Shown: positions 3 to 57,468 of the stretch, one piece after another
How the letters are laid out: each line of letters begins with the position of its first letter
How positions within the stretch are numbered: the stretch's first letter is position 1
Assembly (NCBI GenBank): GCA_963921795.1
Contig: OY997639.1
Location: 51,455,762-51,519,761, forward strand
DNA: 64,000 nt
Reading direction: 5' to 3'
From: Nannobrachium achirus
Lineage: Eukaryota > Chordata > Actinopteri > Myctophiformes > Myctophidae
Notes under the pieces: generated by a model
Databases searched by the model: none
Told to the model about the DNA's origin: nothing
The model's input: the letters and a program-made list of their open reading frames with translations, nothing else
Translations under genes and position numbers: made by a program

Positions 3-3000
3 CTGCAGAGCCAGGTGGCAGAGAAGGGGCGAGAAGTGAAGGAACTCAAGGACACGATCACGGTCCTAATGAAGGAGAAGGAAAAACTTGAGGGGGTTAG
101 TGACATCTTTCATTTTCTACTTTATAGACTTCTTCCACCGGTAAAAGGAAAAAAAGCTGTGTTTTTTTTCTCTCCCTTTTTACAATCTCGTCTGGGTTTT
201 AAAATGTCTCTCTAATTGGAGAAGCTAAGTAAATGAGTTCTGATTTTCCATTTACTCTGGACCACAGCAAGGTCCGCGTTGGCCCCAGAACCCCACCACT
301 CTGCAGCAGCTCAGAGGAGAGAAATGACCCAATTTGAGGTTTAGACTGTAAATAAAATTGGCATCTGCAACAAACATCAAATAACACCCAGCCTCCTGTC
401 TCTCTTTGAAAACAAGAGGAGTTTATTTTTTCGACGAAGTATTAAATAATTAAACTGTTTTTGGAGACCGAAAGAGAATAATAATTTAAAATGCAGAAGC
501 AGTGCTCTTCCGAGCACAGGTCTCCACCAGGCCACACAAATCGGCCTGTTATAGCGCCACCATGAGGCTGATTTAAAAAATGTGGGGCAGAGGTTCTGAA
601 TTAGCATCCAGGGAGTGTGTGTGCTCAGTTTGGCAGCGATCGGGCCAACGGCGCCGGAGATTAGCTGGTAACAACCAGGCCACACAAATCGACCTGTTAT
701 AGCGCCACCATGAGGCTGATTTGAAAAATGTGGGGCAGAGGTTCTAGATTGGCATCCAGGGAGTGTGTGTGCTCAGTTTGGCAGCGATCGGGCCAACGGC
801 GACTGAGATTAGCTGCTCACAAACTGCAAGGACGCACGCACGCACGCACGGACGGACGGACGGACGGACGGAGGGGAAAACATACTCTCCCTCAGCCTTC
901 GGCTGGTGGAGACAATAATTTTAAAAATATAGCCGCTGCGAGGCATTGTAAGCTTGTAGATCTGTTATTTTTGGCTAATATTCCACTCAGAATGAGATGT
1001 TAGGGTTCAAATGGTTACAACAAGGGTTCATATTTTAGATAGTCATTAGAGAAAAGAAAAGATGAGTGTTAAAATGTTTTACTTCTTTCTATCATTTTAG
1101 CGATTTTAACGATTTTGATTTGCATGCATGCAATTGGCTAAATATGTATTTTTAGACAAAATACGCCCAAAGATTTGGTGGCCCCCCTAGTAGTAACCCC
1201 TGTTGAAGACCTCTGCCATAGAGTCCGACTTGTCTTTCTTTCTTTCTTTCCCCCACAGATTGCACACACACCAACAGTAACACTCACACTCACTTAGTTA
1301 GGGAAAGTTAACCGAGTCTTTGACCAATCTGGGAACAAAATGCTTACAATAGCTTTCTTCACAAATGGCCACCACAAAACTGAAAAGTGATGACTCATCA
1401 CTAAACCAGTTTTGTGGTGGCCATTTTTAGCACAAGGGATGTTTTTTGTGCAAAACAAATGCTTGTATTGGATTTAGAATCGTGAAAAAAACCTAGTTTG
1501 ACCCCTCACATGCTACTTAAAGCAGATGTAATTTTTTTTATTATAATCCTGTATAGTAAAGTCAATGAGACCCCAACTTTGATTGGCTCCCACAAAGTTT
1601 CCCGAGGGAGTTGGGTTTGACAAAGTTCAGAGGTGATAGTAGACACCTTTATGAACACATTTGTGAAGAAAGCATTTAGTTCCCAGATTGGTCAAAGACT
1701 GCTAACTTTCCCTAACTAACTGTGTAAATTGATTAAATCCGATCCTTGATCTTGTTCTCACACCGAAATCCATTGTGAGATTTGTCATTAATCATTCTTG
1801 ATTTACATTTGATGCTTGTAGTAGGATGACTTGTACATGCATTATTTGACATAACCGGCCTGCATAAATAATATTGAACAAAAGACCAAAGCAGGGAAGC
1901 TGATCGTTTGCCTCCCCACTCTCCCACTCCCACCAGGATGTGTCGAAGACGGGCACTAAGAAAGAACTGTCCAGCGGTGAGAAGCTGCAGAACATGGAGT
2001 GCAGCAAGAGCAGCCTTCCTGTGTTCCTGCAGTATCCCCTGCCCTGCAGCCAGGATGCACCCACCCCTCTCCAGGTCTCCCAGAGCCCCACCCAGCTGCA
2101 CTTTGGGAACCCATACTCCAGCTCCTCAGACACAAAAGGTCAGCTGAGCCCACCTCTGTGACAGTAACGCACATCCAGTGGTGGGAAAAGTACTTAAATG
2201 TTTTACTTAACCCTCCTAGGTCGGCAGACATCACGACTTCAAAGCCTTGTTACATAATGATTACACAGCTGGCACCTACCGTATTTTCCGGACTATAAGG
2301 CGCACTTAAAAGTCTTTAATTTTCTCAAAAAACTACAGTGCGCCTTATAGTCCAGTGCGCCTTATATATGGATCATTCATTGACATTGACATTCCCTTTA
2401 GCACAGCTCCATCTGTTTGATGCATAACGCAACGGTAGCGTCTATTATGTGCGCCTTATAGTCAGGTGCGCCTTATATATGAAAACAGTTTGAAAATAGA
2501 CCATTCATTGACAGTGCGCCTTATAGTCAGGTGCGCCTTATAGTCCAGAAAATACTGTATATGGTTCGAAACTGCAGAAATTACACTATATATTTTGAAT
2601 GAAAAATACTGAGTTTTCACAGAGAAAAGATAATTTAAAGTTTACATAAAAGTACATAAAAGTATATAATAATTACAGAGTGCGTCATGGTCATTGAAAC
2701 AGGGAATCACTGACTTACTGTAACTTTTTTTTTTGGGGGGGGGGGGATTTCCAAGCTGTAAAAAGCCACATCCATAGTCTCTCTGCTTCTCTCCAAAATA
2801 AAGTATCCATTTTGTACTCCATTTTGTACCACTTGGTCAGATTTCATGCTAAAAGATTGCCTAGGCCTAATAGTGGTTGAAAGTAAACAAACAAACTCGC
2901 GAAAAGTCTGTGCGTCCCCTTCTCTCCTCTCACAGTGCACACTGATGGCCACACACGTTACATAACATTCCTGCACTTTTACATAACAAAGGATAAGCTA

Positions 3001-4653
3001 AACAGCTAACCAGGAACTAGAGTTATTGAAATGAATTGAGGCGATGATGTCATCCACTAATCCTTGTCTTTGCACTGAAACCTTTGGTTGCCATGGAAAT
3101 GAACAACGTCACATGGCTTCTTCTTTTATGATTTTCAAGCCTTAGCATGGGAGTGATTGCACCATAGACATAGAAAGGTAGACGCCTCCTTCAACTCTGA
3201 TGCATATGCATCGAGGGACCAAGGGAATCATGTGTGCATTGCTTCCATGTGCGTCACACATAGGGAAGTTGCTTGGCCAATCAGAGGTAGTTGGGGGTGG
3301 GTCTTTACGTACGCAAGAACAGCTGAGCTGAACAGCGCAGCCTTTCCTACGGGCGCAAGGGATCCCCCAAAATTATTTGGGGGGTTCCCGCAATGATTAG
3401 CACCATTATTTTCTCATTCAACAGTAAAGTGTATATACAGTGTATCTGCACATTTATACAGTTACAATTTAATTACTTTTAAAGACCTTTTTAATACCAA
3501 ATTGTCAAATATCACATAAGAAAGAGGCAAACATTGTGAAAATAGACGATCTACAAGCTCACAACGTCTCGCACAGCTATTTTCACAATATCCGGGAACC
3601 GTGTCAAACTCAATTGCCATTCCACTGTGACTTTTCTCCCACCATGATTGACTTTTCTCCTGCAGACGAGGAGGTAGATGAGCAGCTCTCTGATGAGCAG
3701 CTGCTGCGCCTGCCCCCTGTGGGCCCCCCGTCCTGGGACAGCAACATCGTGTGCATCCAGCCCAGCCGCAACCTCAGCCGGCCCGACGCACTCGATGACA
3801 TAGAGGAGCAGCACAACAATAACAACAATGTAAATATGAATTAGGGAATGAGACCATAATAGTTATTTCGTTTATCGTGATTAAAAAACACTCACAATAA
3901 TCGTGAAACTATCCTCTGTCATGCACTGGGATCATTTCTCCTTTTATTTGCCGAGTTGCATATCCAGTATACCAACAGACCTGGAAATAACGTACTTGAT
4001 AATCACTCTGGACACCTTCATGAGACATATAATGAAATATATTATCATATATTCCGACTACTGTTTAGGGCAACGCCAATGAGCAGCCCGCAGCGATTGA
4101 ACGAAGGACAAACCGCCTTCTGCTTTGACTCCAGGTACGTAACCATATACCATGTCTAACATTTCTGGGTTCCTGGTAAGCCTGACCTGTGCATTGTTCC
4201 ACCCTTTCTATCCTGATGTTGATGTTAGCGGCCCAGCGGACCACCCACATAGACCCCAGACAGATGCTATTTATTAGCAAAACGTGCCTGCTTTGCCAAC
4301 ACCATCACTCCACTTGCTTATTAACACAAGCTCTCTCTTTCTCTCCCTCCCTCTCTCTCTATTTCCTCTCTTGTACCCCTTTCCCATCTCTCTTTTTCTA
4401 TCGATTCTCTCTCTGTCACCCCCGTCTGTCGTGTCCTCTCGTTCCCATGTCCAGCATGGACATGAAGCGATGTCCGCTCTGCGGGGTCATCTTCCCGCCC
4501 AACTACGAACAGAGTAACTTTGAGGAGCACGTGGAGAGCCACTGGAAGGTCTGCCCCATGTGCAGCGAGCTGTTCCCCCTGGACTGCGACCTGAAGATCT
4601 TCGAGAACCACGTGCTCACGCACTTTGACGGAAACATGTTAAATTTTGACTAA
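3..4653 (+). CDS. tax1bp1: TAX1BP1, 3' part (autophagy/ubiquitin adaptor), partial
   Basis: Five exons are read: 3-95, 1937-2138, 3666-3829, about 4094-4134 and 4455-4653 (stop TAA 4651-4653). The first is charged coiled coil (LQSQVAEKGREVKELKD...). The second and third encode the linker, with segments typical of TAX1BP1 (SLPVFLQYPLP, VCIQPSRNLSRPDALDD). The last carries two C2H2 fingers (CPLC...HVESH and CPMC...HVLTH) and ends HFDGNMLNFD, close to the family's C-terminus. In the family these fingers bind ubiquitin and myosin VI, and the protein acts as a cytosolic selective-autophagy receptor and a TNFAIP3 (A20) partner. The 5' exons (SKICH domain, LIR motif) lie left of the window. Exons 1-3 join in phase. 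The most obvious acceptor for exon 4 (exon from 4069) is out of phase; one at 4092-4093 is in phase, so that boundary is uncertain. The a/b paralogue is not resolved. Confidence 0.9.
531..826. repeat. 148-bp tandem duplication of a GCGCCACCATGAGG repeat
   Basis: The segment starting GCCACACAAATCG at 531 recurs at 679 with a 148-base period and few differences. Both units contain the phrase TTATAGCGCCACCATGAGGC, which also occurs near 10610, 13870 and 14060 and, inverted, at 21350, so this is a dispersed family that has locally duplicated. A (CGCA)n(CGGA)n tract at 832-872 follows the second unit. It lies in a tax1bp1 intron. Confidence 0.8.
1291..1724. mobile_element. MITE with about 60-bp terminal inverted repeats
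   Basis: The left end (TTAGTTAGGGAAAGTTA..., then CTTTGACCAATCTGGGAAC and TTTCTTCACAAA) is matched in reverse complement by 1661-1720. An inner hairpin (GGCCACCACAAAACTG with CAGTTTTGTGGTGGCC, about 1366-1425) sits in the left half. The stretch 1485-1545 resembles 17625-17690 in the opposite orientation, which links this copy to the inverted-repeat element at 17443. No transposase reading frame is present, so it is non-autonomous. Confidence 0.75.
2278..2556. mobile_element. MITE built on GTGCGCCTTATAGTC repeats
   Basis: The left end ACCGTATTTTCCGGACTATAAGGCGCAC (written here only as a motif; its core is GGACTATAAGGCGCAC) is matched inversely by GTGCGCCTTATAGTCCAGAA near 2531-2550. Inside, the GCGCCTTATA core is repeated several more times, so the termini have multiplied internally. 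It is non-coding. Confidence 0.7.
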
Positions 4654-5259: not shown

Positions 5260-7017
5260 TTTAAAGCTCCCAGTATTGTTTTATTTGGCAACGTTTCGAC
5301 CCTGTGCGGGTCTTCTTCAGGCATGGTATCATACAGGAAATACAAATGTTAAGTACTCATAGCAGTGGGTGTGTGGCAGTGAAACACAGCTGCTCACAAT
5401 AATCATCCAAGATAACCCGCCCACCCAAATTACCAGAGAAGGCTGCTGATTGACAGTGTCTAGCCTGTATAGGTAACATTAAAACATTTTATAATAAATC
5501 AGAGAATGGGGGGGGGTTACAGATAGTAGTATTCTCAGTAATGCAGAGTAAGAAAAATAAACTGCAAAATAAAACACTTGAGTAAAAACAATAAACCTGA
5601 AACCATACAAATAGTACAAAAATAAGTAAAATTCAAGTTATGGACACATATGGACATTAATGGCATAAGGCATATGGCATCAGACTTGATGCCTATGCGG
5701 AACTACAAAGATTAAAATATTAAAAAACATTTTTTTTAAACAAAATGAAAAAGCTAGCCCAGAAATGGTTTTATGTCAAATTCCTCATTAAGGCCGTGAG
5801 GGGCCATAGTATTGAGCGTAAAGATATAGAAAGCCTCACGTTGTAGTAGGAGACGATTGTGGTCTCCACCACGTGGTGGTCTGTTAACTTTTTCTATACC
5901 CCAATATCTAAGAGAGGTGATGCTATATATGGCCCTTTTGTTTGAAATGGGCTGCCACAGGGTTGCGCTCATCACCGCATCTTATGTTGCTTCTGTGTTC
6001 ACTGATCCTGGTACGCAGGGCTCTACTAGTTTTGCCAACATAGGCCAATCCACATGGGCATTTAATGAGATAAACAACAAAAGTTGTTGAGCAAGTAATA
6101 GCTCCATGTATAGTCATTTCTTTGCCACTGTGCGGATGAGTGAACACTTTAGTTTTGATCGTATAGGTGCACTGAACACAGTTTGAACACTTATAATTGC
6201 CAGGAGGAATGTCTGCAAGGAAAGTCTTTTTTAAAGGAATATAAGAGCGCACAAGTTTGTCTCTGATAGTAGGGGACCGTCTAAAGACCACTTTAGGGGG
6301 CCCTGTGAACACATTTTTAAGTTTAGGATCCGTCTCCACAATATGCCAGTATTTGAGAAGGATTTTTCTAAACTCAAAACCCAATGGGGAATATCTGGTA
6401 ATACAAAGAGGAGAATCATTTTTTTGTTTTGTGCGTCTTGTGGGGTTCAGGCATTCCTCCTGTGTGGCTGACTCAAAACGTTTTGCAGCATTGTTAATCC
6501 ATTCTGTTCTGTACCCTCTTGTTAGAAATCTCTCAGTCAAATTTGCTGCTTGTTTTTTATAAGACTCATTGGAACTGCATATCCTTCTCGCACGGTGGAA
6601 CTGACTAATGGGGAGACTTTTAACCAAATGTTGTGGATGAAAACTGTCTCCATGAAGTAAGGTGTTCCTATCCGTAGGTTTGCGATACAGATCTGTCTGT
6701 AGTTGACCCCTTTATTTTTTCACCAGCACATCAAGGAAACTGATCTGAGCATCACTATACTCTAGAGTCAATTTCAAATGTTCAACCCGAGAGTTTAAGT
6801 AGTCATGAAAAAGAGTCAGATTTTCAGCTGTATCATTCCATAATAGGAATAAATCATCAATATATCGATGAAAAGTAATAATGCTGGAGTGGAAAGGGTT
6901 CACCTCAGAATTAAGAATATACGAGAGCTCGAACAAACCCATGTACAAATTGGCATAACTGGGAGCCATGGTGCGATTTTTGTATTTTGATTTCAGTGGG
7001 TGGGGGCATGAGTACAA
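5260..7017 (-). mobile_element. Penelope-like retroelement, 5'-truncated and frameshifted
   Basis: On the minus strand, 7017-6712 encodes the end of a reverse transcriptase with the core motif FHRYIDDLFLLW (about residues 49-60 of that fragment). After a break, 6627-5923 encodes 234 residues ending in a GIY-YIG endonuclease region (VVYLIKCPCGLAYVGKTSRALRTR), preceded by a Cys cluster KCSNCVQC. A further frame (about 5970-5755) carries the C-terminal tail RAIYSITSLRYWGIEKVNRP. RT followed by GIY-YIG is diagnostic of Penelope-like elements, and the Cys cluster fits the Neptune/Penelope groups. Frame breaks between the pieces and the missing N-terminal RT make it a dead copy. The 3' end includes a hammerhead-like motif at 5289-5321. 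Confidence 0.85.
5289..5321 (-). ncRNA. Degenerate hammerhead-ribozyme-like motif of the Penelope element
   Basis: Read on the minus strand: CCTGAAGA, then AGACCC-loop-GGGTC, then GAAAC. This is the hammerhead core order (CUGAUGA, stem II, GAAA) with one core substitution, CUGAAGA. Hammerhead motifs in the terminal repeats of Penelope-like elements are established. Activity of this copy is unlikely. Confidence 0.5.
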
Positions 7018-8202: not shown

Positions 8203-10295
8203 GACTTTATTAGAAGTTTGCATAGGAAAAGGTACAGTTTCATGACGGTACAGTTCACTGGTACAAGGTCTACTAAAAGGTGATCCATGAAAAGACTAAG
8301 CTTATTTCCACAGGAAACCATTAAAGTATCTCATACAACACTGAATGACAGACGAATAGAACACAGTACTATGCAGTAGATATGTAAAAAAAAATGAGAG
8401 AACAAAAAAAAAAGACAACAGTAAGTCTACTCTAAACAAACAGTAAGTATATACAAAGAAGGGGCAGGGGAGGGTAGGGTTGGGCTAGGTTAGTTTTTTT
8501 TACCAGTTGCGAACGGCTGCTGCCTGTAAGTGGTTTTTCAGGGCAATTTTAAAGGATGCTAGTGATCCACACTCCTTTATGGCCTTCGGTAAGGCTTTCC
8601 ACATTTTGGTGGTATAGCAGAAAAAAGAGTTTGACCCTTTGTTGGTTTTGACTCTGGGTTGAAAGTGATCTGTGGCGCTGCCTCTGGTGTTGTAATTATG
8701 GACAGGTACTTGGGTATCATAGTGGTGTAGTGTATCTTGTACACCAGGCCCATTGCAAGTTGCTGTACTCTGTCATCTACTCTGAGCCACCCCACTCTTA
8801 ACTGGTGTGTAGTGGTGAGGTGAGTCTGATAGGGAAGGTTAAGCAGGACCCTAATTCATTTATTTTGGGCTGTTTGGGGTTTAGTTTTTAGGGCTTGTGG
8901 GGCGTCACGATACCATACGTGGACTCCGTAGTCAAAGAGGGGCTGGATTATTGCACCAGCTATGGTATTCAGTGTTGAAATTGACCATTGGGGCGATCCT
9001 CTGTAGGAAACGAGTTTGTTGGTTGATTTTATTTATTACTTTATTTATTACTTTTCGCTGGAAAGATTAGCTTCCAGGATACATCCTAAGTAAGAGATTT
9101 CGTTTTTTCGTGTTATGACCTTGTCACCCACTTTGATTGTGAAGTTATCGACTTTTTTGAGGTTATGATTTGATCCAAAGAGGATGGACTCAGTTTTTCC
9201 CAGGTGAATTGATAATTTGTTGTCGTTAAGCCATGTGCAGATCTTACTTAATTCAGAGTTAAGTGTCTTTTCAACCTGCAAGTGGTCCTTGCCCGAGACT
9301 AGGAGAGCCGAGTCATCCGCGAACAGGAACAGGTTGCAGTCACAAGCAGATGCCATGTCGTTCACGTATATTAGGAACAACAGAGGTCCCAGTATGCTAC
9401 CTTGAGGAACACCACAGCTTACTGGGAGGGGGGGGACAGGGTACCGTTAATCTCCACCACCTGTTCCCTCCCCACCAGGTAAGATTGCATCCAACTCACT
9501 GCTGCGCTGTCATGTCTTGACAGCGCAGCAGTGAGTTGGATGCTTTTAGTTTCTCAATCAGAATAAAATTATTTACAGTGTCAAATGCCTTCTGGAGGTC
9601 CATCATGACCATGCCGTCATCCGCTTCGCGTTTGATTTGGTCAGTCAAATAGAGAAGACATGTGTCAGTGGAATGAGATTTTCTGAATCCAGATTGGAAC
9701 TCGTAAATCAGATTACTCTCATCGAGGTATCTTGCAATCTGTTCGTAGACTATTTGCCAGACCCAGGGGGTCGGCCTACATAAGGCTTTGTCGGTCGGTC
9801 GGTCGGTCGGTCCCTCTTTTCCTCTGATTGCCTTGAGTGCCGTCACCTGTACAGGACCAGCTGAGTTGAGTTGGCTGACGAGCTGCTGACACTATAAATT
9901 CCTCAGCCCATCTGCAAGCTCACAAACATTTCCAGCTGCTCAGCCTATACAATCCTGTGTGTTCATGTGTTAGTTCAGTGCCATACTAGTCAAAACAGCC
10001 GATCTACAAGCTCACTACGCTTTGTTGCTGAGACTATAAAATCCTGTGTGTTCATGTGTTAGTTCAGTGCCATACTAGTTTTCATTGCGGGTCTGGCACA
10101 ACCAGGTGACCTGGTCTAGTTTCTCCATGACTTTGGATATGGAGCTAAGAATGGAAACCGGGCGGTAGTTTCCAGGGTCTAGTTTGCTACCTTTTTTATG
10201 CAGGGGGGTTACTTTTGCTAGTTTGAAGTCCTGGGGGACATGACCCTGTTCGATGGAAAGGTTAATTATGTGGGTAACGATTGGAGTGGTAAATC
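8113..10295 (-). mobile_element. CR1/L2-type LINE, defective, with nested insertion and (GATT)n tail
   Basis: Reverse-transcriptase pieces run along the minus strand. About 10295-10085 reads PLHKKGSKLDPGNYRPVS. The stretch 9756-9540 reads FQSGFRKSHSTDTCL and MMDLQKAFDTVN. The piece 9430-9048 reads GVPQGSILGPLLF and then the catalytic FADDSALL. The C-terminal piece GWLRVDDRVQQLAMGLVYK lies at 8795-8577. The 3' end is a (TCAA)n-type tail seen on the plus strand as (GATT)n at 8115-8200, a tail style of CR1/L2-like LINEs. The RT is broken by an unrelated insertion at about 9757-10085 and by an inverted duplication at 9488-9543, so the copy is dead. A second copy lies at 46845-47610. Confidence 0.85.
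9757..10085. repeat. Insertion nested in the LINE, with an 89-bp direct repeat
   Basis: The LINE frame is interrupted by (GGTC)n at 9789-9812 and two copies of TGTGTTCATGTGTTAGTTC, the copies being 89 bases apart (starting about 9952 and 10041). It contains two half-copies of the short GATCTACAAGCTCAC repeat (9911 and 10001). No coding potential is seen. Confidence 0.65.
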
Positions 10296-11919: not shown

Positions 11920-13086
11920 TTAATCCCATGCCAAAGCATCAGCACTCGCCCAGCAGTCTGCACGCGCCCATGTGGAGGGCAAGTTCGCTTGGCCCTTAAG
12001 GCGAGGTCGATTCTTGCCCTTAGGGCGTCTTACTGGTTTATGTATTTTTCTGTTGCTGTTGGTAGTCATGGTTGCCATTTCCCACCTGATGTCATGTGGG
12101 AGTTCAGACTGTTCCAGACCATTCTGAGTGACTGCTAGCTTGCATAACATCTTCAAGCTAAGATTTAAGTCTAGGATGTACAGGTCACCAGAAGTGATGT
12201 TGGGTTTTTTGTATCCTCCAAGGATGATGATACAATCTCCCACCATGCAACAGCACATCCCATACTTGCTACAGGGGTCTTTCCCCTTGGGCTCAATCTG
12301 CTTCCAGGAAAACATCTCTTGACTGAATTTCCATAGATCATTTAAGTTCCCGTTCCAGCCGATGCCACCAAATATGTACAGCTCTCCATTGTAGGCAAAG
12401 GCTGAATGAAAATTGCGTCCTGGAATAAGGTGTTGTTTAGAAGGCAAGCTCAGCCAGCAGTTTGTCTCTGTGTCAAACACTCTGATGCTGTTGCAGCAAC
12501 CAGCGCCCCCAAATACAAACATCTTTGTCCCAATGATGGTGGCTGAGTGACCTTCTGTAAAAGGTGGTTGAGTGCCTTCAGTGTTAATTAAGGTCCAGAT
12601 CATTATGCTGGTGTCCAACTTGTATATGTCATTATTATATCCAGGTAGTTCGGGGCGTCCCCCATACACATACATAACCTTCTCTAGGTCACAGGCTGAG
12701 TGGAAACACCTTGCTCCTGGAATAGTCCCAGATGGTCCCAGACCCCTATTGGGTCTGAACCAGCTGTGGTCGTCGACACCAAAGGCATAAAGCACATTGC
12801 AGTAAGGGAACCCTCCCCAGATGAAGACAATTTCTTCTACCAGCACAGCTGTGTGGCCCATGCGCCCGGAGGGAAGCTCAATGGGGCCTTGTCCTGTTTT
12901 ATTTGTCACTGAGGGCAACTTCCTCCAACGCAAGGACAATGTGTTGAAAATGTGGACTTCAATCTGATCACTGTTGTTTAGGTCTTTGTAGTGCATTCCA
13001 AATGTGTACAGCTTGTGTCCAACTACCACAGGAGCATGGTAGTATTTATTAGGTCCTCCTTTCAGATGTATCGTCCAGTGACACAT
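11920..13086 (-). CDS. Intronless KLHDC3-like kelch protein with repeat-derived C-terminus
   Basis: One open frame of 388 residues. It follows KLHDC3 (a kelch-repeat substrate receptor of Cullin-2 ubiquitin ligases) along its length: WTIHLKGGP near the start, VHIFNTLSLRW, CNVLYAF, PGARCFHSA, DIYKLDTS, WKQIEPKGK, LCKLAV and LPHDIRWE..MTTNSN at 329-345. Kelch Gly-Gly pairs are at 91-92, 142-143, 193-194, 240-241 and 290-291; the first blade has lost its pair (G30-M31). KLHDC3 genes have many introns, so this is read as a retrocopy that kept an open frame. Residues 351-388 (PVRRPKGKNRP...ALAWD) do not belong to the family and are encoded by a Helitron-like repeat end in antisense. Several blades are shorter than in KLHDC3. 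Start: the first Met aligns with the family's. Function and expression are unknown; it may be a young pseudogene without a stop. Confidence 0.8.
   Translation of the reverse strand: MCHWTIHLKGGPNKYYHAPVVVGHKLYTFGMHYKDLNNSDQIEVHIFNTLSLRWRKLPSVTNKTGQGPIELPSGRMGHTAVLVEEIVFIWGGFPYCNVLYAFGVDDHSWFRPNRGLGPSGTIPGARCFHSACDLEKVMYVYGGRPELPGYNNDIYKLDTSIMIWTLINTEGTQPPFTEGHSATIIGTKMFVFGGAGCCNSIRVFDTETNCWLSLPSKQHLIPGRNFHSAFAYNGELYIFGGIGWNGNLNDLWKFSQEMFSWKQIEPKGKDPCSKYGMCCCMVGDCIIILGGYKKPNITSGDLYILDLNLSLKMLCKLAVTQNGLEQSELPHDIRWEMATMTTNSNRKIHKPVRRPKGKNRPRLKGQANLPSTWARADCWASADALAWD
11940..12036 (+). mobile_element. Helitron-like 3' end forming the tail of the kelch gene
   Basis: On the plus strand GCCCTTAGGGC (12016-12026) is followed by G and TCTTACTGG (12028-12036). 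This is the same 3' hairpin and end as the copies at 34851-34870 and, inverted, 57180-57199. The upstream GAGGGCAAGTTCGCTT piece also matches the 57.2-kb copy. Codon 351 of the kelch frame starts exactly at this boundary. Confidence 0.7.
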
Positions 13087-13690
13087 TTCAACAGAAGTAC
13101 CACTTTGAATCAGTGGAACTAGTTTACAGATAAATCATTAAATGAAACCTCACCGTTGGAACAGTTTGAATGACACTTTATTAATCGGGACAATTATGTT
13201 TAAAGGACAATTACATTTGTTGTGATGACATTGTTTGATGTCATTGTGTGATGATGTAATTATGTAGAATATCTAATGGAATATCCATCCATCCTCTCAT
13301 GTCAAGTCCCCTTTCCCTGTGGTGTTCCACAAGGATCATTTCTGGGTCCTGTACCTGTCCTTGGTAATAAGTTTATCATCTGAAATCATAACTTCCATTT
13401 TCGCTGTTTCACCCATCATTAATGGAAATCAAAGGAGCTCAGACCTGGCTGAAATGTGCCCACATTTGGAGTCGTACGGTAGATCACATTTACTGTACAG
13501 ACACAGAGACAGGCTGGCTGACGAGTCTGAGAACCACGTTGGAGCCACGCTGATCCCACAAGGATCCCAAGATCCACATGATTTGATTCCTTTTACTCAG
13601 GAGTTAAGAATGCCTCGCTCTAGTTTTTGATCCCTCTGCAAACATCCCCAGAGACCACCGGGCTAGATATTTTTAGTGGCTGTGCAGGTT
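13087..13690. other. Intergenic, no recognised feature
   Basis: AT-rich unique sequence; no splice-flanked coding segment or repeat end was recognised. Confidence 0.4.
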
Positions 13691-18930: not shown

Positions 18931-21900
18931 ATGGAACAGGAATTTGAGGACATAGATTCGTCAGGACGATGGCAAAACCTCTACAATGTAAGTCGCGACA
19001 CGACGGGGCCTCTCATGTGTTTCTATGGCGATGCGGTTGGTTGCTAGCTTGCTAGCTAACTAGCTAGCTAACTAACTAGCTAACAGACTACAGTCAGTTG
19101 TGTAAAGTAACCAAGTACATTTACTTAAGTACATTTTTGACTTGAGTATTTCCAATACTTTTGCTTCTACTCCACTACATCTCGGATCCAAATATTGTAC
19201 GTTTACTCCACTACCATTACTTGAACTCCCGAAGCATTGTGAGCCTGAGCCTGTAGATGTTATTTTCAAATATTTGCATACATTTGAAAACGTGTGAAAC
19301 GGGACATTGTGCATAGTGAGTGCATAGTAGTGAGTGCTTTTACTTCTACACTGCACTATTAATACTTTTACCTAAGTAAAACGTGAGTACTTTTTTCTTC
19401 CACCACTGCTAGCTAGCTAGCTAGCTAACGTTATGCAGCTGGCAAGCTTTGCTTTGCCTGCCAAGCCCTCGCCTTTGTAGCCGGGTCAGGGAAGTCATTT
19501 GGTTGACACACTGTTTTACTGACAACAACATTCCGGTGGCAGTGCCACCTACGAGAAGTAATAACCACGTTATTCGCTACCCAGACTTCCGTAGCTAATG
19601 AGCTAAAACGTGCACTAACACCACTTAACGTTAGTACGTTACGTTAGCCTTCTGGAATAAAATGTACACCAAGGATGAGACTATGACGTAATCAACAATG
19701 GGAAGTGTTGTATAATGTGGCAGTGGTTCAAACAAAAAGTGGTTCAAAACTTTTTAGCTCAAGACGCAAAAGAGAATTTAGACGTTTGCCCGGGATCCAC
19801 AATGGCCATTTTGCACATTCGTTTTCTAATTTATGGAGTGTATCAAAACATCTTATTTATTAATGAACTTAGAACAATCATTGCAGATTCATTCTCTTTT
19901 CTTTTTTGATGAAATTCTTAGCTTTTGGGGGGAATGTTTTTGTTTTGAAGTAATAATTATTAAAAACAAAATGTAGGAACCCTTTTTAAGGGACCCATGA
20001 AAATGTAAGTAGTGTTTTGAAGCCTGAGTGACTTTGTAGATCTTCTATTAATATAATATTATTTTTTGATGAAATTCTTAGCTTTTGGGGGGAATGTTTT
20101 TGTTTTGAAGTAATAATTAAAAACAAAATGTAGGAACCCTTTTTAAGGGACCCATAAAAATGTAAGTAGTGTTTTGAAGCCTGAGTGACTTTGTAGATCT
20201 TCTATTAATATAATAGTTTTTAGTTTTTTACAACTTCAATGCTTCACGGGGACTTCTCTCCACTGACTGTTACGTATTTAAATTACGTATTTAAAAAAAT
20301 ATATATTATATTTCACTTGAAAATACGTCATTGTTAATGAGCTGAAGGCGCGGTTCATTTCCGCTGGATGTTTAGTTGTGACATCACAGGCGAGTCCTAG
20401 ATTGTATGCACCGTCGACTCGACCGCAGCTTCTGAGAAGTCATCAAGACTTCCCAGAGAAGAGCGTAGCATATGTATTACCAGCAGACATGCTGCTGGTC
20501 GCAGGACAGGACGCTCTGTCTGTCTGCTGTTGATGCAGCATCCCAGTTTCTCTGTTCCCAACTTCCCAAACCTTTTGATTGATTGAATATTTTATAAGAC
20601 AAAAATGAAGAACAGTACAAGTATATAGTCAATACAAAAAAGAAATGTAGTACAGTACAAGTACAGTTAAACACCCTGCCTAAAAGGAACACCCCAAGTA
20701 AGTCCTTTTATGGTGTTGTTCATGTCGGAGGTCCTTGGTATTCAATTCATGGACGTAACAAATGCGAAAAAACTATACACTATATGTATCAAGTCAATGA
20801 CCCCCAAACTGACTTTACCCATTTGAAAAATAGTAATGATGTACCAGGGACCCCATTAGAGAAGGCCCCCCCCCCCCCGTTTGACATGCATTAGGCTACG
20901 GACCCCCATATTTATTATCTATGGGACCCCCAGTTTATTTATAGTATAAATAAATTAGGGTCTGGCCTAGCGGTCAAGGCACAGACCACATAGGCTATGA
21001 TGCGCCTATACATTTGATAGGGATCATCAGAGCCTATGTGGTATGTGCCTCGATCGCTAGGCCAGCGGGCGCCCTGTTCCCCTGGACCTCAAGCACCCCT
21101 GGTGTAGCTGTATTACTTTTGGACGTGACCCTGCCTGTGCCACCAGTAAGACTCCCTAATTGGGAGATAAACGACAGTCACGTCGCACAGACAAACTTTA
21201 GAAGGCAATCGTAGCCAATCAGGAGGGAATATGGGAAATGAGACTGATCCATGTTGATGACATGACTTTAGAGATACTGTGTAGCGCTTTGTGTGATTTT
21301 GGGGCAAAATCTGTAGGAGCGTGTCCAAAAATGTTTTTCAAAAATGGGCCTCATGGTGCTGCTAGAAGAGGGGCATGTGAGAAATCAGGGGTGGAGTTTG
21401 TGGTTTGGCAGCCAAGGAGTGTGTGTGTTTGGCATCAATAGGGCCAAAGGTGGCCCTAGAGTAGGGGCAAAAGTGTGATGTGACCTGACGGACAGAGGGA
21501 CTGACAGACAGCCAGTGGAGCTTTTCTTAGTAACTTGCGACCTAACGGTCGCAACAACATGGTTTTACTTTATTGGAGTATTTTAAATGTTCTGTACTTT
21601 TACCTGTACCCCACAAGATCTCAGAAGCAAATATTGTACTTTTTACTCCACTACCCTACTTTGTGGATTTCTATTATTGTTACAAAACAGTGTTGTGTTA
21701 ACACATTTCAGCAGTCTTTAAAAACTCATATCAGGATTTAATCTGAAACATTTATTTTATTTTATTTGATCTACCTACCTACCTAGTTGTCTTGATGTGA
21801 ATGTGAGTAATTGATCCAAGGAAAATACTGAAGTATACAGGTGATGCAATTTGGCCAATTATAATGACATTTATTTCAAATCTCCTTGGCAAGTTTTTAT

Positions 21901-24900: not shown

Positions 24901-27900
24901 TTTACAGAACATCCGTGCTGCTACTTGGTCTTGGTCCAAGCATCCATCCATCCCCCCCACACCCACATTTTTGGATGTCTGATTCGAACTGTGGCTCTCA
25001 CTAGTAGCATATATGGTCTGCGCACACACACTAGTTGAGCCCCCATGTCCCCCTAGCATTTGTCTTCAAAGGAGATTGAATGAACTCATGTATTTTCTCT
25101 GTAACAGGAAAAGTGTGCCCAGTATTGGCCCACCACAGAAGAGCAACAGATGCCATTCACAGACACAGGGTTTGTTGTGAAGCTAGTTTCAGAGGAGGAC
25201 ATGTCTTATTACACTATACGAGTCCTAGAACTGCAAAACTCAAAGGTGAGCGCTTGATCAGTGACCACATACTGTTGAATGTCATCTTTGATATTCCAGT
25301 GGTCCGGTATTGTGGGGAAGCACACAGTAAAATCGTGTTTTGTTTTTGCTTTTTAACTCCAAAACCAAATAATTTCTATTTGTACACTTAAAGTGTACAG
25401 GTTGTGCAGTGTAGTTGTGTAGCAATCTCAACCACAGTGCCGTACATCATAGAATTTAATCATAGAATTTAATCTTTCCATTGTCTTTGCAAATTACTTT
25501 ATTAGCTTTGTGTAACAATGATTGCATGTTTGCATTGCATGACTGCATATTCTGCTCTATAATTTATCCTGACCAATGCAAGTTCTTTAGAACTGTTAAA
25601 GAATACATTTGGTATGCAAAGATATTCTGTTTCTCCTTATCACATCCACTTTCTCACTGTGTCACCTGGTCCAGACAGGGGAGTCCAGGGAGATCTACCA
25701 CTTTCATTATACCACATGGCCTGACTTCGGCGTCCCAGAATCCCCTGCCTCTTTCCTCAACTTCCTCTTCAAGGTGCGGGAGTCGGGTTCCTTGGGTCCA
25801 GAACACGGGCCCTCTGTGGTGCACTGCAGTGCTGGGATAGGACGCTCAGGGACCTTCTCATTGGTGGACACTTGTCTGGTTCTGGTGAGGAGGATTATCA
25901 TTGAAAGTTATGTCCAGAGAACAGAAGGGGAATTATCATGGAATGGGTTAGGAAAGGACTGGAAGGGTTTCCAGAGTGTTGAACTTTAAGCCAAATGTGC
26001 CTTAAAGGATTAGTTCACCCCCAAAATGACTTTTTTTCTATTGATTACTCAGGCCATGGAGAGTAGAGTTCAATAATATTTTTTGGTTTTTGTCACATTC
26101 CTAAGACAACATTTTGATTCGAGTAAATTTACCCCCATTGATTCCGGATGGTGACCCGTTTCGAAACGGGTCACCATCCGGAATCAATGGGGCTAAATGT
26201 ATTGTTATCACATTTTTGTCTTAGGAATGTGACAAAAACCAAAAAATATTATTGAACTCTACTCTCCATGGCCTGAGTAATCAATAGAAAAAAAGTCATT
26301 TTGGGGGTGAACTACTCCTTTAATACATTATAATTGTCCTCTATAACTACAATGGAAAAGTAAAAACACCTTCAATATTTTATGTATTATAGAAAACTGT
26401 TGCTAATCTTTCGCTCATTAGGGGCAGGTCCACGTTGGTAAAAAAAAATGAAATGGCTGATTGGTTAGGACGCGGTGGGTGGAAGCGGAGATCGCTTCAG
26501 TTGGATTTTTCCAGCTGGGAAGAAGATACCAAATCGGCCGTTCGCGTCGTTCACGCCACCCCATTCGGATCCTTTCCACCGTGCCCGGTCGCGCATCGTC
26601 TCTTCTTTGCATTCATGTTATTTGTAATCGCATGTTCGAACGCACCACTTTGTTTGTAATCGCATGTTTGAACGCACCATAAGTCTACCTATTGCCAACC
26701 ATTGCTTATTTTAATCTTGCAACAATGAATTGCCCAGTTTGCAACATAATAAACCTGACTTTGACCTTTGTGTTTATCACATAGGGACTATGCTGGTATA
26801 AACATAAGTGGCAAGGGGTGTTAATATGTCACAAAACTTTGAGGTAGATATTAGAAAAGGGTAAACATCACTCAATCCTTTGGATTTGTTCCTTTGGTCA
26901 TCATTGTATTCTTGGTTTTTGCCTTTGATACAGAAAGGAAAAAAGAACACTCCTGTGTGACTTATCCATATAAATAGCTAATGTATGCCACAGCAATATT
27001 TTGTCGAAACACAGGCTTTGTTAAACATTCTTCTCAGCTTCATTGTAAACATCCTCTTCCTTATCCGTTGTGCAGATGGACAAGAGGAAGGACCCATCGA
27101 CAGTTGACATCCAGAGGGTCCTACTGGACATGAGGGAGTATCGGATGGGCCTGATCCAGACCCCAGACCAGCTCCGCTTCTCCTATATGGCTGTCATAGA
27201 GGGGGCCAAGTCTATCCTGAAAGACATCTCGATACAGGTAGATTCATTAGTTGGAACTCGGATCTTAGAAGAAATGGTTCAGTCTGCATTCACAGCTGCT
27301 GTGACTCACTTTCTAGTTCAGTCTGCATTCGCAGCTGCTGTGACTCAATTTCTTTTGACAATGTTTAAAGGATCAAGTCAGCATAATTTTGATTTCTTGT
27401 CAACGTCTCCAACCAAAATCTGCGGTCCATTTTTCTCTTTCTTGATTTGAGTGTAAACAAGGCAGTCTATGTGTTCTGGGATGGAGATTGAAGAAGAAAT
27501 TCCTTCTACTCAAAGAAAGCAGTACGATGGCCAGCCATGTTCATCGCAATGATAATTTATGATGCAGTTCAGCTTATTTGTTTTAAGTAAAAGCTGACTG
27601 GTAAATTCTGGACTATTAAAAGCTACAGACTAGAGATGTCAAAATATTTCACCATGCTCTGGTCATGTCCTAGTAAACAATATGCTTAAGCGCATCTTTC
27701 AACAACTTCTTTGTTCAACACTCACCTGAGATGTTCTCTCTGTTACGTGTGGTAAGAATATGCTCATCTTTGTGTATCTATCCTGTCTTTGTCCCGTTCT
27801 CTGTAGCAGAGCGAGCAGAGAGTGATGTTCAAAGACAACATCAAGCCAGATCTACCCCCTCCACCACCACCACCCAGGCCTTACTTGGATGACGGGCCCT

Positions 27901-33396: not shown

Positions 33397-36300
33397 ATGT
33401 CTCTACCGCCAGAAAAAGCCTCTGAACTGAAACAAATAATTCACAACCATTTGATCAAGGTAAGTGACACTGTGACAGTGGTGGAAATGTTATTGTTTTA
33501 GTTCTTTTTATAGGCTACCTGTAAGTACCTCTTACATATTGAGTGGTGATCTGTGTTGTGGTATAGCCCTATAGACAAGCCCTGAATACAGGACGGTCCC
33601 TGTATTCAGGGCTAAGCCCTAGCCATAATGGCTGTGATATATTACTGTAGGCCTATATATTTTAATATATTCGTTGCAGCAATGGGTGTTCTCCACTGTA
33701 ATGTTGTTGGTCACTCTCAGGCAGCACCAGAACATATCAACCTATACTGGCTACAATTATTACTGATTCTATTATCAGAAGTATAATTGCGACCATAGGT
33801 TGCACGTTTACTATGAAAACGGTCACAGCTTGTCTGTGTGTATCTGTCTGTCACGCCTGACACTGTGGTTCTATGGGTTTGTCGCTCTGACATCATGCTC
33901 TGAGGTCACTAATGTCAGGGTAACCACTCTTAACAGAATGGGTTTGCCGCTCTCACATCACACTCTGGCTTGATGTCACTTTTATGCCCATATATGGAGA
34001 TCACTGATGTCATCACGAGTCACACTTGCAAATTAATTACAATTACATCCTTGTCCGTTTTATGCCCATATATGGAGATCCCTGTTCCGTTGTCATCAAT
34101 ATTAAGCGCGACCTAGCTTGACACCCTGAGGCGTCTCAAGCCCGTATCAGAGTCGGGTCCGCGGTGGAAGGCTATCCACCGCGGTGTAGTGCCGTGTAGT
34201 CTTTTTGAGTCATAAAACTACAACGTTAACGCTCAAAAAGACTACACGGCACTACACCGCGGTGGATAGCCTTCCACCGCGGACCCGACTCTGATACGGG
34301 CTTTACTAGTTGATTGTGACCCTAGGTCGCAGATTAGTATGTAAACGGTCACAGCTTGTCCGTATGTGTGTATCTCTGTCTGTCACGCCTGGCACTGTGG
34401 TTCTATGGGGTTGTCGCTCTGATGTCAGGGGAATCACTCTTAACAGAATGGTTTTGCTGCTCTGACATCACGCTCTGGCTTCACTGTCATGTCACACTAA
34501 CAGAATCACTTTAATGCCCATATATGGAGTTCCCTGATGTCATCAATATTAAGCCCATATCTAACAGGACTTGTAACAGAATCCATATACAGTATGGCCA
34601 AGACAGCTCATATCTGTGTGGCTGGTTCTACAGACAGGGATCTCCATCTCTATGTATGTGCATAAAATGGTATGATGTCAGATGTCATAGACATCATAGG
34701 ACTTTCACATAACGAATAACTGAATAAGCATGTTTGGGCTCTCACAGCATATCTCCATACATGGATCTCCATAAATGGGTACCAGGGGTCCGGTCTCCAT
34801 ATACTGTATGGGTAACTGTTCCGATATACATCACTGGCCAGATATATGTTGCCCTGAGGCGTCTTACTAGTAATTATTATACTATTGTTAGCTTATGAGT
34901 CATGATTCAAGTCAAAACCTCCTAAAAGCATCAGCTTTTAACGTAAGTGTGTGAGGCTGGCTCACACAATGAAGTTGAAGTCAAGTCGGTTATGTAGCAA
35001 TTTTTGCAACAATCAATAATTGTATAAGAGCTTTCATTCTTTCTTACAAAATGATACAAATGTTGGTAATCTACTGCAACAGGAGGGGGAGGGGGAGAGG
35101 GAATAGAATTGTGGTTAGTGACTTAGTGTCACAATTTTATAAGTGTTGATCGCGGATACACACCATTGTCTTGTTTTTTCTGTTTTCTTGTTTCTCTTTA
35201 TTTGTTTGTTTGTCTTTTGCTTCATAATTGTATTGTAACTTTGTGGGAGGGGGGTGGAGGGAGGGGTGGGGGTTGATGATTCAGAGTGTAATGTATATGT
35301 CTTGTTCTTTAAATAACAAAAATTTACCTATAAAAATATTGTTTAAAAAAAAAAAAAAAAGGAGCTTTCATTCACCTGGATTCAAACAGTTTAAAAGCAG
35401 GTGTGCGTATGCTAAAATCAGCGGGCGACATCAGAGAAGGAAGTAACCTGCACACTACCAGCTTGCATGATTAATTAGCATAATAAAACATTATGGTAAA
35501 AGCATAGGATATGCACATCCCCTGTACATTTCTTTGAAAAAGTTGTTGCCATATGCTGGACCAAAAATATTCAAGTGAAAAGGGAATTTCCACACACGAT
35601 AAATTGCTGCTCTGCTCTCCCATATTTTATTTAAACAACCTGAACAACTTTGCGCGTGCAAAGGCTTCAACTGATGAAGACCTTGCATGGGTGAAACTTT
35701 GTTTGTGTTGATTAAATAAAATGCATGTGAACAGCAATTATCTGTGTCTGTGCGGACATTCCTCTCCTTTCAATTCACATGGTAAACATTGAGACTATTG
35801 GAGCCTCTAACTCGGTATAACCAGTGGGCTGATGACCAATAATAATTGTGTGTGGAAGGAGAGGGTATTTATCGTATACATTTTATTATTTTTGTCTTAT
35901 TTAATTTTTTAGATGAACATCCATGGCAAGATCCGAGACATTCTGGCTGAGACTGTGAGGGATGACCTTGGCGCTGGACGTCATGCACTCTCTGAGGCGG
36001 ACTTTCTTTATGCCCTGCAACGGAGAGGCATTGTGGACGATGTCATGAAGGACCTACATTTCACCAAGGTTGCACACCACTCGGCCGGCAATGTATACAT
36101 TTACACACACAGTCGCTTCACAGTCCTCCTCTAACCTCTCTTTTCTCTGCCGCTTGAATAAGGAATCTCCACTAGAAACCGACAAAGGATCGCCTTCAAA
36201 GCCTGCTACTCACTTTGTTGATAAAGACCCGACTCAATTAAATAAAAGTAAGGAGATAATGGGGAACGTACTGTCTCTTGAGAGTCCCTTCATTTTGGAA

Positions 36301-57179: not shown

Positions 57180-57468
57180 CCAGTAAGACGCCTAAGGGCG
57201 AAAAGCGACCTTGCCCGCGCCATCTGTCTTGGCCATATATGGATTCTGTTAGTGTGGTTCTCCTAACAGGGCATCATCTGTATACAATCTCTTTTAAGCC
57301 GATATATGTGGATCCCTGCTCTGAGTATCTGACATCACTGTGATGTCACCTGTGATGTCACAGTGATGTATCAGGGGAACCACAGTGTCAGGCGTTACCC
57401 GTCCGGACGGACGTCTACGGACAAGCTGTGACGGTTCTGATAGTAAACTGCGACCTATGGTCGCAACT
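57180..57468 (-). mobile_element. Helitron-like repeat copy E, full length
   Basis: Minus orientation. The 5' palindrome TGCGACCATAGGTCGCA is at about 57465-57449, then CACAGCTTGTCCGTAG, with one CCATATATGG site at 57233. The 3' end is CGCCCTTAGGCG and TCTTACTGG, closing at 57180. It shares its last 60 bp with the C-terminal codons of the kelch gene at 11940-12036. Confidence 0.7.

What the first reader, a model, noticed from the sequence alone, without database searches (positions are those of the whole stretch)
11920..13086. Open retrocopy of klhdc3 whose C-terminus is made of a Helitron-like repeat
A 388-codon single-exon frame follows KLHDC3 up to about residue 345-350. From codon 351, exactly at position 12036, the coding sequence becomes the antisense of a Helitron-like 3' terminus (hairpin GCCCTTAGGGC, then TCTTACTGG), which also ends copies at 34870 and 57180. 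The repeat supplied 38 new basic-then-neutral residues and the stop codon. The frame is open despite lost Gly-Gly in blade 1 and shortened blades. KLHDC3-type receptors are studied for C-degron recognition by their kelch propeller, so a changed paralogue could have new specificity.
Basis: partly seen in the sequence, partly recalled or inferred. Interest (0 to 1): 0.8.

Follow-up and report, generated by a model that had tools for sequence, protein, structure and literature searches.

The report
Huge family of hypervariable degradation receptors
The gene copy that was flagged is one of many hundreds of intron-free copies of a protein-degradation receptor in this genome, in which the supporting frame is kept while the residues lining the binding pocket differ from copy to copy, rather as in an immune repertoire.

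Summary
In detail: 11920-13086(-) is an open 388-codon frame, best match KLHDC3, running into a Helitron-type 3' end. The interpretation misses the main point. The same intronless gene occurs all over this 1.66 Gb genome: motifs of 7 and 10 codons hit 829 and 890 places (reversed controls 0), and three capped searches listed 312 distinct places with open frames of at least 330 codons. One exon of an intron-bearing klhdc3 was found. In 93 intact copies the propeller and cullin-docking motifs are conserved, but the residues with which KLHDC3 holds C-degrons are among the most variable: 77 window-like copies give dN there 4.5 times overall dS and twice the upstream divergence; the carboxylate-anchoring RSR triad is complete in 0 of 93; 93 of 93 pocket combinations differ. 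Best reading: a germline-encoded, diversifying repertoire of CUL2 substrate receptors with new specificities, perhaps for defence (function inferred; no expression data, one species only). The Helitron tail is incidental: the family's stop just before it was lost, and the sister copy's tail differs by frame-shifting indels. How the roughly 1.25 kb units spread is unresolved. Seven paper searches listed no report of this expansion.

The parts
11920..13086 (-). 388-codon open frame of this copy (W), KLHDC3-like
12052..13086 (-). codons 1-345: kelch propeller, BC box, CUL2 box, up to the conserved MTTNSN; the part shared with the other members
12130..12159 (-). BC-box-like SLKMLCKLAV (KLHDC3 SLKTLCKLAV); motif definition recalled
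   Evidence: loose consensus in 86 of 93 copies, [SP]LK.LCKLAV in 59 of 93
12076..12102 (-). CUL2-box-like LPHDIRWEM (KLHDC3 LPHDIRWEL); motif definition recalled
   Evidence: 91 of 93 copies, 16 of which were sampled by this motif
12037..12051 (-). place of the family stop codon (consensus AACAGAAAAAAATGACA), lost here (AACAGAAAAATACATAAA), so the frame reads on
11977..12036 (+). Helitron-type 3' end, apparently a tandemly duplicated hairpin, CTGG|T; read antisense as codons 351-370
11920..11976 (-). last 18 codons and stop; origin not shown; also present in sister copy L009, with frame-changing indels between the two
13087..13294 (-). 5' part of the unit shared with other copies (up to about 208 bp before the ATG; contains ATGACATCACAACATTGTCATCAC-like and CCAATG-like stretches)
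57180..57215 (-). related Helitron-type 3' end
34836..34870 (+). related Helitron-type 3' end (CTAG|T)
21143..21175 (-). fourth Helitron-type 3' end, different hairpin, same TCTTACTGG

Best explanation
This is one member of a very large family of intronless genes that arose from a retrocopy of klhdc3 and then multiplied to many hundreds of copies, found on all of contigs C1-C24, several hundred of them with long open frames. Each encodes a six-bladed kelch propeller with BC- and CUL2-box motifs, so each should still dock on Elongin B/C-CUL2 and present a target for ubiquitylation (inferred from motifs). What differs from copy to copy is the mouth and channel of the propeller: residues before the conserved His of strand A and the residue after the Gly-Gly pair, blade after blade. 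The frame is kept and these residues are diversified by selection (supported by computation). The C-terminal-Gly degron anchor of KLHDC3 and its self-inhibiting His-Gly end are lost, so members should not be C-degron receptors but recognise other, varied targets (inferred). The likeliest use is intracellular defence, destroying proteins of viruses, parasites or mobile elements in an arms race (inferred, not tested).
For: Copies: 106 scored places, the window's own included, all matched in one stretch from residue 1-3 to at least residue 342 (106 of 4094 candidates scored); 829 and 890 motif places, 0 in reversed controls; 312 of 335 distinct listed places in open frames of >=330 codons. Integrity: 77 of 81 best-scoring copies; 16 of 20 copies taken along C1 by a 7-codon motif, 119 of 121 rows besides the query have no stop within 330 codons. 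Origin: exon with AG|...|GT borders and its part of the pocket intact. Diversification: the published pocket columns have median entropy 2.97 against 0.66 (p 5.6e-8, 93 copies), and in the 16 C1 copies alone p 2.7e-7; 77 window-like copies give dN/dS(all) 4.49 at the 12 pocket columns against 0.78 elsewhere, and 2.04 against 0.36 relative to upstream divergence, with similar values in 38 disjoint pairs; 656 pocket replacements against a mean of 186 for random column sets, reached by 0 of 20000. Docking motifs: CUL2 box 91 of 93, loose BC consensus 86 of 93. Sixteen ring positions are 25% Tyr (6.1x), with 93 of 93 combinations distinct.
Against: No transcription, protein or binding data. Average dN/dS is near 1 by parsimony (0.95 terminal, 1.00 internal branches), so constraint on the frame shows mainly through open frames, conserved columns and the comparison with upstream DNA. 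Only 1 site passes a 5% false-discovery rate on its own, and random column sets reached the pocket's parsimony omega in 10 of 5000 draws. The 81 best-scoring copies were chosen for scoring well; the C1 sample needed an intact 7-codon motif, and a stricter start rule accepted only 7 of 20. L100, an example of an intact copy from the C1 sample, has as nearest relative a frame-broken copy at 90-91% identity, so its age as a separate copy is not large. Synonymous sites are more alike than upstream DNA (0.156 against 0.343), hinting at gene conversion or constraint, so no single dN/dS figure is safe. Immune function is analogy only. No other species could be searched.
Confidence: 0.7

Rival explanations
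1. A mobile element rather than a host gene family: the roughly 1.25 kb unit (5' part plus frame) is copied in trans or inside composite transposons; copies are intact because they are young, and the frame diversifies because the element fights host control.
For: Among 21 copies with long flanks, shared sequence ends at median +1010..+1056 and often at about -165..-220, although median synonymous divergence is only 0.18, so duplicated flanks should still align; dispersion over C1-C24; 32 of 77 window-like copies are followed at once by a (CA)n/(CACG)n tract against 19 of 546 control windows; L015 and L024 on different contigs share -171..+1776 at 96% and no colinear sequence before -171; nearest pairs are as close as dS 0.013.
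Against: No transposase, reverse transcriptase or terminal repeats were seen in the unit (not searched exhaustively); 5' edges are ragged (medians -43 to -181); 0 of 16 C1 copies has the (CA)n tract; intact C1 copies differ by median dS 0.51; neutral expectation is 6.8 nonsense changes per C1 copy on its own branch (an overestimate, since closer relatives were not sampled); tandem clusters exist (C5, C8).
Confidence: 0.2
2. Ordinary decaying retropseudogenes: KLHDC3 is strongly expressed in testis, so it was retroposed often, and the open frames are luck.
For: KLHDC3 is most highly expressed in testis in mouse (PMC12922316, passages); retrocopy origin; 4 of 81 and 4 of 20 copies are broken.
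Against: Neutral decay to W's identity with human KLHDC3 left no stop in only 2 of 1800 simulated runs; 312 listed places in long open frames; replacements concentrate in the pocket; copies are closer to one another (median dS 0.18 and 0.51) than to the parent exon (0.97).
Confidence: 0.03
3. As first read: a single klhdc3 retrogene whose Helitron-derived basic tail gives it a new property.
For: The frame does run 38 codons into and past a Helitron-type end; the sister copy L009 is also open, 390 codons.
Against: Hundreds of other members; tail differs between the two sisters by frame-shifting indels; other copies that lost the stop have unrelated tails, e.g. microsatellite-encoded.
Confidence: 0.03
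4. Relaxed constraint rather than diversifying selection: once the C-degron site was lost, pocket residues drift while the fold is kept.
For: Pocket residues of KLHDC3 are kept in only 132 of 1209 cells; few single sites are individually significant.
Against: Replacement rate at pocket columns is about twice the upstream non-coding rate and 4.5 times dS; residue use is skewed (Tyr 6.1x, Pro 0.05x at 16 ring positions).
Confidence: 0.12

Closest known systems
KLHDC3 (CRL2 C-degron substrate receptor)
   Same: Same propeller and same order of BC and CUL2 boxes; 55.6% identity for W; source of the family.
   Different: Intronless, many hundreds of copies; RSR triad complete in 0 of 93, His-Gly C-end in 0 of 93, pocket hypervariable.
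finTRIM genes of teleosts (PMC2657112, abstract and section list seen)
   Same: Fish-specific burst of TRIM genes (84 in zebrafish) under strong positive selection in the B30.2 recognition domain; proposed role in innate immunity.
   Different: RING/B-box/B30.2 proteins in clusters; here a cullin adaptor on a kelch propeller, intronless, at least several times as many, dispersed as well as clustered.
Nematode and plant F-box and MATH-BTB adapter expansions (Thomas 2006, recalled, not seen)
   Same: Large families of cullin substrate adapters with positive selection in the substrate-binding part, suggested to act in defence.
   Different: Other cullins, other folds, invertebrates and plants.
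KLHDC2 / KLHDC10 (other C-degron receptors)
   Same: Related kelch BC-box receptors (66.7 and 62.2 bits).
   Different: Far weaker sequence match than KLHDC3.
Helitron 3' ends
   Same: Hairpin followed by CTRR and a T at 12036 and three more places in the window.
   Different: Only the 3' end is recognised; no 5' end or helicase found; incidental to the gene.

Membership tests
KLHDC3 family (sequence) | Best match to KLHDC3 over the propeller and C-terminal boxes | tested here: met
   363.8 bits over residues 1-349, next 99.5
KLHDC3-type C-degron receptor (function) | RSR motif R240/S241/R292 that binds the substrate's C-terminal carboxylate (PMC11568203, section 7) | tested here: not met
   W has N, F, Y; complete triad in 0 of 93 copies
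KLHDC3-type C-degron receptor (function) | Own C-terminal His-Gly as degron mimic (PMC11568203, section 8) | tested here: not met
   0 of 93 frames end in HG; 2 of 93 end in Gly, L010 and L103
CRL2 (BC-box/CUL2-box) substrate receptor | BC box and CUL2 box sequence | tested here: met
   loose BC consensus 86 of 93, CUL2 box 91 of 93 (definitions recalled; the CUL2 motif was the sampling criterion for 16 of the 93)
CRL2 (BC-box/CUL2-box) substrate receptor | Binding to Elongin B/C and CUL2, ubiquitylation activity | not testable with these tools
   needs protein
Retrogene of klhdc3 | Intronless copy of an intron-bearing parent in the same genome | tested here: met
   one exon with AG/GT borders, L109, C13:26.81 Mb; copies run through without introns; other parent exons were sought but the searches did not complete
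Retrogene of klhdc3 | Poly-A tail and target-site duplication | tested here: inconclusive
   no exact repeat of 9 bp or more between the stretches compared around W; an A-rich tract follows the tail but is not clean; W is old
Functional gene rather than pseudogene | Frame maintained beyond neutral expectation | tested here: met
   with the sampling caveats given
Functional gene rather than pseudogene | Transcription | not testable with these tools
   no RNA data at hand
Positively selected recognition repertoire (finTRIM-like) | Excess replacement at the ligand-binding site, defined independently | tested here: met
Positively selected recognition repertoire (finTRIM-like) | Induction by infection or a known pathogen ligand | not testable with these tools
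   none
Helitron | 3' hairpin plus CTRR|T | tested here: met
Helitron | 5' TC end, Rep/helicase, or full element | tested here: inconclusive
   no shared 5' end seen among the four copies; no helicase search made
Transposable element (as name for the kelch unit) | Defined termini and own or borrowed mobility machinery | tested here: inconclusive
   sharp 3' edges, ragged 5' edges; no machinery identified

The most novel reading that the evidence does not exclude
A vertebrate has built, out of one housekeeping E3 receptor, a germline-encoded repertoire of a thousand or more single-exon degradation receptors with an antibody-like, Tyr-rich hypervariable ring at the mouth of a fixed propeller, spreading as self-contained 1.25 kb units and used to mark foreign or selfish proteins for destruction inside cells.
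Probability: 0.35. Interest if true: 0.95.

Novelty: new variant of a known kind. Interest (0 to 1): 0.85.

Why it matters
Expanded, fast-evolving ubiquitin-ligase genes are known from finTRIMs and (recalled) from nematode and plant F-box/MATH proteins, but I found no report of a cullin-adaptor repertoire of this size in a vertebrate, made from one receptor whose structure with ligand is solved. Because the pocket residues are known to the atom in KLHDC3, the family makes a direct test possible of how E3 specificity evolves, and offers hundreds of naturally diversified binding pockets on one scaffold with the cullin-docking motifs intact, of interest both for intracellular immunity and for targeted protein degradation.

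Tried and rejected
Single-retrocopy reading: dropped. Missing last exon: no KLHDC3-like C-terminal peptide in the window (motif recalled, best matches 5 of 9 residues). Helitron tail as functional: rejected. The antisense Helitron end offers CCA|GTAAGA, a possible splice donor; not testable. Structure of W alone: mean pLDDT 31.8, useless; no fold search was run on it. Viral-contig search for relatives: none. Paper searches for such an expansion; three gave 0 papers, the others were judged from listings (titles and starts of abstracts), capped. (CA)n-primed retroposition as the general mechanism: seen in 32 of 77 window-like but 0 of 16 C1 copies. A first, stricter start rule called 7 of 20 C1 copies intact; inspection of the frames led to the rule (ATG at the aligned start, at least 325 codons), 16 of 20. 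The nearest-relative search with L103 and the second parent-exon search never got an answer.

Full report
What was checked first. The frame is real: 11920-13134 on the minus strand is open, with an ATG at 13086 giving 388 codons. Pfam gives kelch propeller families, and phmmer against solved structures gives KLHDC3 (9d1i_A, 1.1e-107) far ahead of everything else. Of 342 aligned residues 190 are identical, with 11 gap runs and no stop. Similarity to the other ends covers 11977-12036 only.

First sign of something larger. KLHDC3 is the substrate receptor of a CUL2 ubiquitin ligase and reads C-terminal Gly degrons; its contact residues are given in PMC11568203 (abstract, passages, and sections 7, 8 and 9 read). 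Of 14 residues named there, V115 does not fit the chain's numbering (the chain has W115, which W keeps) and was left out of the count; of the other 13 none is kept in the window copy (2 are deleted), against 190 of 361 elsewhere (Fisher p 7.9e-5; without the two deletions 0 of 11, p 1.1e-4). The BC-box and CUL2-box stretches are nearly unchanged. Neutral decay to the same identity left no stop in 2 of 1800 simulated runs (human KLHDC3 stands in for the parent, which overstates the distance).

The family. The window's own genome is held (1,658,514,493 bases, 564 contigs). A search with the product scored 106 of 4094 first-look candidates; all 106, the window's own included, match in one stretch from residue 1-3 to at least residue 342, at 68-80% identity apart from itself (many rows count stops, but this query runs past the family's usual stop). 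Exact degenerate patterns for LPHDIRW and YNGELYIFGG hit 829 and 890 places, with 0 in reversed controls. On contigs C1 and C2 I counted by eye 19 copies shared between the 55 and 89 hits listed there, which puts the number of places with at least one motif near 1,450 and a capture-recapture guess at 2,600-3,900; the guess assumes independence and would include broken copies. Two more searches (82 aa of KLHDC3; the first 330 aa of copy L100) found many further members. Pooling the rows of the three searches gives 335 distinct places on 26 contigs (all of C1-C24 and two small ones; one place is the parent exon), 312 of them in an open frame of at least 330 codons, counted stop to stop.

Integrity. 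I fetched 80 of the 105 other places and 20 of the 27 LPHDIRW hits on C1. With the window copy, 77 of the first 81 have the ATG and at least 335 open codons; of the C1 set 16 of 20 have the ATG and at least 325 (a stricter start rule gave 7 of 20). The first set was chosen by score and the second needed an intact 7-codon motif, so both fractions are upper estimates. In one search, whose query stops before the natural stop codon, 119 of the 121 rows besides the query have no stop inside and 2 have one each; one place appears as two rows because of a frame break. That broken place is L100's nearest relative (90-91% identity); an intact one follows at 84%, one at 67%, and the rest lie at 55-62%.

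Origin. A 214 bp exon on C13, bordered by CAG| and |GTAAGA, encodes the klhdc3 stretch GTPARW...RRSHSA with F182, R198, R240 and S241 intact; only this exon was seen. The 93 intact copies differ from it by median dS 0.97 and dN 0.315 over a median of 61 codons, but from one another by median dS 0.18 (77 window-like copies) or 0.51 (16 C1 copies). This fits one old retrocopy and later amplification.

The pocket is hypervariable. In an alignment of the 93 intact copies with KLHDC3, the published pocket columns have median entropy 2.97 against 0.66 for the rest (Mann-Whitney 5.6e-8); the 77 window-like copies give 9.3e-8 and the 16 C1 copies 2.7e-7. The variability sits at the same places blade after blade: the peak before the strand-A His (or its equivalent) is 2.8-3.3 in all six blades, and the residue after Gly-Gly scores 2.5-3.7 in five; the sixth (blade 2) is too gapped to score. 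His and Gly-Gly themselves are at 0.0-0.6, except the blade 1 His (1.4) and second Gly (1.0). The KLHDC3 residue is kept in 132 of 1209 pocket cells; the full RSR triad in 0 of 93. At 16 ring positions (chosen after seeing the alignment, unlike the 12 published ones) Tyr makes up 25% (6.1 times the rest), Cys, Trp, Ser and Arg are also enriched, Pro is nearly absent, and all 93 copies have different combinations.

Selection. Over 2926 pairs of the 77 window-like copies, dN at the 12 published columns is 4.49 times the overall dS and 2.04 times the divergence of the 165 bp upstream; the remaining columns give 0.78 and 0.36; 38 disjoint closest pairs give 4.49, 1.88, 0.88 and 0.37. With dS taken from the same columns the pocket ratios are 2.26-2.76 against 0.62-0.74, and by parsimony on a tree of 93 copies 1.81 against 0.71, with 656 pocket replacements against a mean of 186 for random column sets, reached by 0 of 20000; the parsimony ratio itself was reached by 10 of 5000 random sets. 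Against my reading: the average over all columns is about 1, only one site is significant alone after correction, synonymous sites are more alike than upstream DNA, and copies may exchange sequence by gene conversion, which nothing here models.

The tail. The family consensus ends ...MTTNSNRKK and a TGA; 63 of 77 window-like frames end by codon 352. The window copy and its sister L009 (C2:47.58 Mb) lost that stop by small changes and read into the Helitron end lying just behind it. Between the two sisters the tail has 1- and 2-base indels, so it is not kept in frame. Other copies that lost the stop have other tails, such as microsatellite-encoded ones.

Spread. Among 21 copies with 3 kb flanks, shared sequence ends at median +1010 to +1056 on the 3' side; on the 5' side many pairs reach about -165 to -220, but medians range from -43 to -181. 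At this synonymous divergence duplicated flanks would still align, so mostly short units moved rather than whole segments, with exceptions (W/L009, L015/L020, L019/L022 share longer flanks; L015/L024 share the 3' flank up to the end of another repeat). A (CA)n-type tract follows 32 of 77 window-like copies (control 19 of 546 windows) but 0 of 16 C1 copies. The mechanism is open; KLHDC3's strong testis expression (PMC12922316, passages) would favour retroposition.

Known or not. No paper on a klhdc3 expansion turned up (open-licence library, listings only). The nearest known kind is finTRIM (PMC2657112, abstract and section list seen): 84 zebrafish genes with positive selection in the recognition domain. 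The nematode and plant F-box/MATH case is recalled, not seen.

How it most likely works. Supported by computation: a conserved propeller with conserved docking motifs and a diversifying pocket, in several hundred copies with long open frames. Inferred: each binds Elongin B/C and CUL2 and sends a different target to the proteasome; the targets are not C-terminal-Gly degrons; the driving force is an arms race with pathogens or mobile elements.

Noticed in passing
G000:C15:1940802-1942061: Two KLHDC3-like matches 1 kb apart are both reported in a 748-codon open frame, apparently two propellers fused in tandem.
   Followed up: no
G000:C7:11040904: A family match inside a 2104-codon open frame.
   Followed up: no
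window 5923-6711(-): 262-codon frame with a weak GIY-YIG match (Pfam 20.3 bits, below its cut-off of 22.6), Penelope-like by recall.
   Followed up: no
window 9048-9891(-): Two pieces of a reverse transcriptase (RVT_1, 52.3 and 26.4 bits, the second below cut-off), probably a decayed LINE.
   Followed up: no
   Followed up: partly
window 4186-4650(+), 25600-27450(+), 36049-36621(+): Exons of an autophagy-receptor zinc-finger gene, a PTPN2-like phosphatase and CEP76; the kelch copy sits between the first two.
   Followed up: partly
L015 (-398..-172 and +1541..+1776 from its ATG), L020, L024: A repeat ending GATACCCATCCCTA flanks the kelch unit on both sides in L015/L020 and ends the shared stretch in L024: a possible composite mobile unit.
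   Followed up: partly
family 5' region, about -165..-126 from the ATG: Conserved ATGACATCACAACATTGTCATCAC and CCAATG stretches, resembling CRE and CCAAT promoter boxes (names recalled), carried inside the unit.
   Followed up: no
G000 clusters C5:5.71-5.83 Mb, C5:66.6-67.5 Mb, C8:59-69 Mb: Dense local clusters of members beside the dispersed ones.
   Followed up: no
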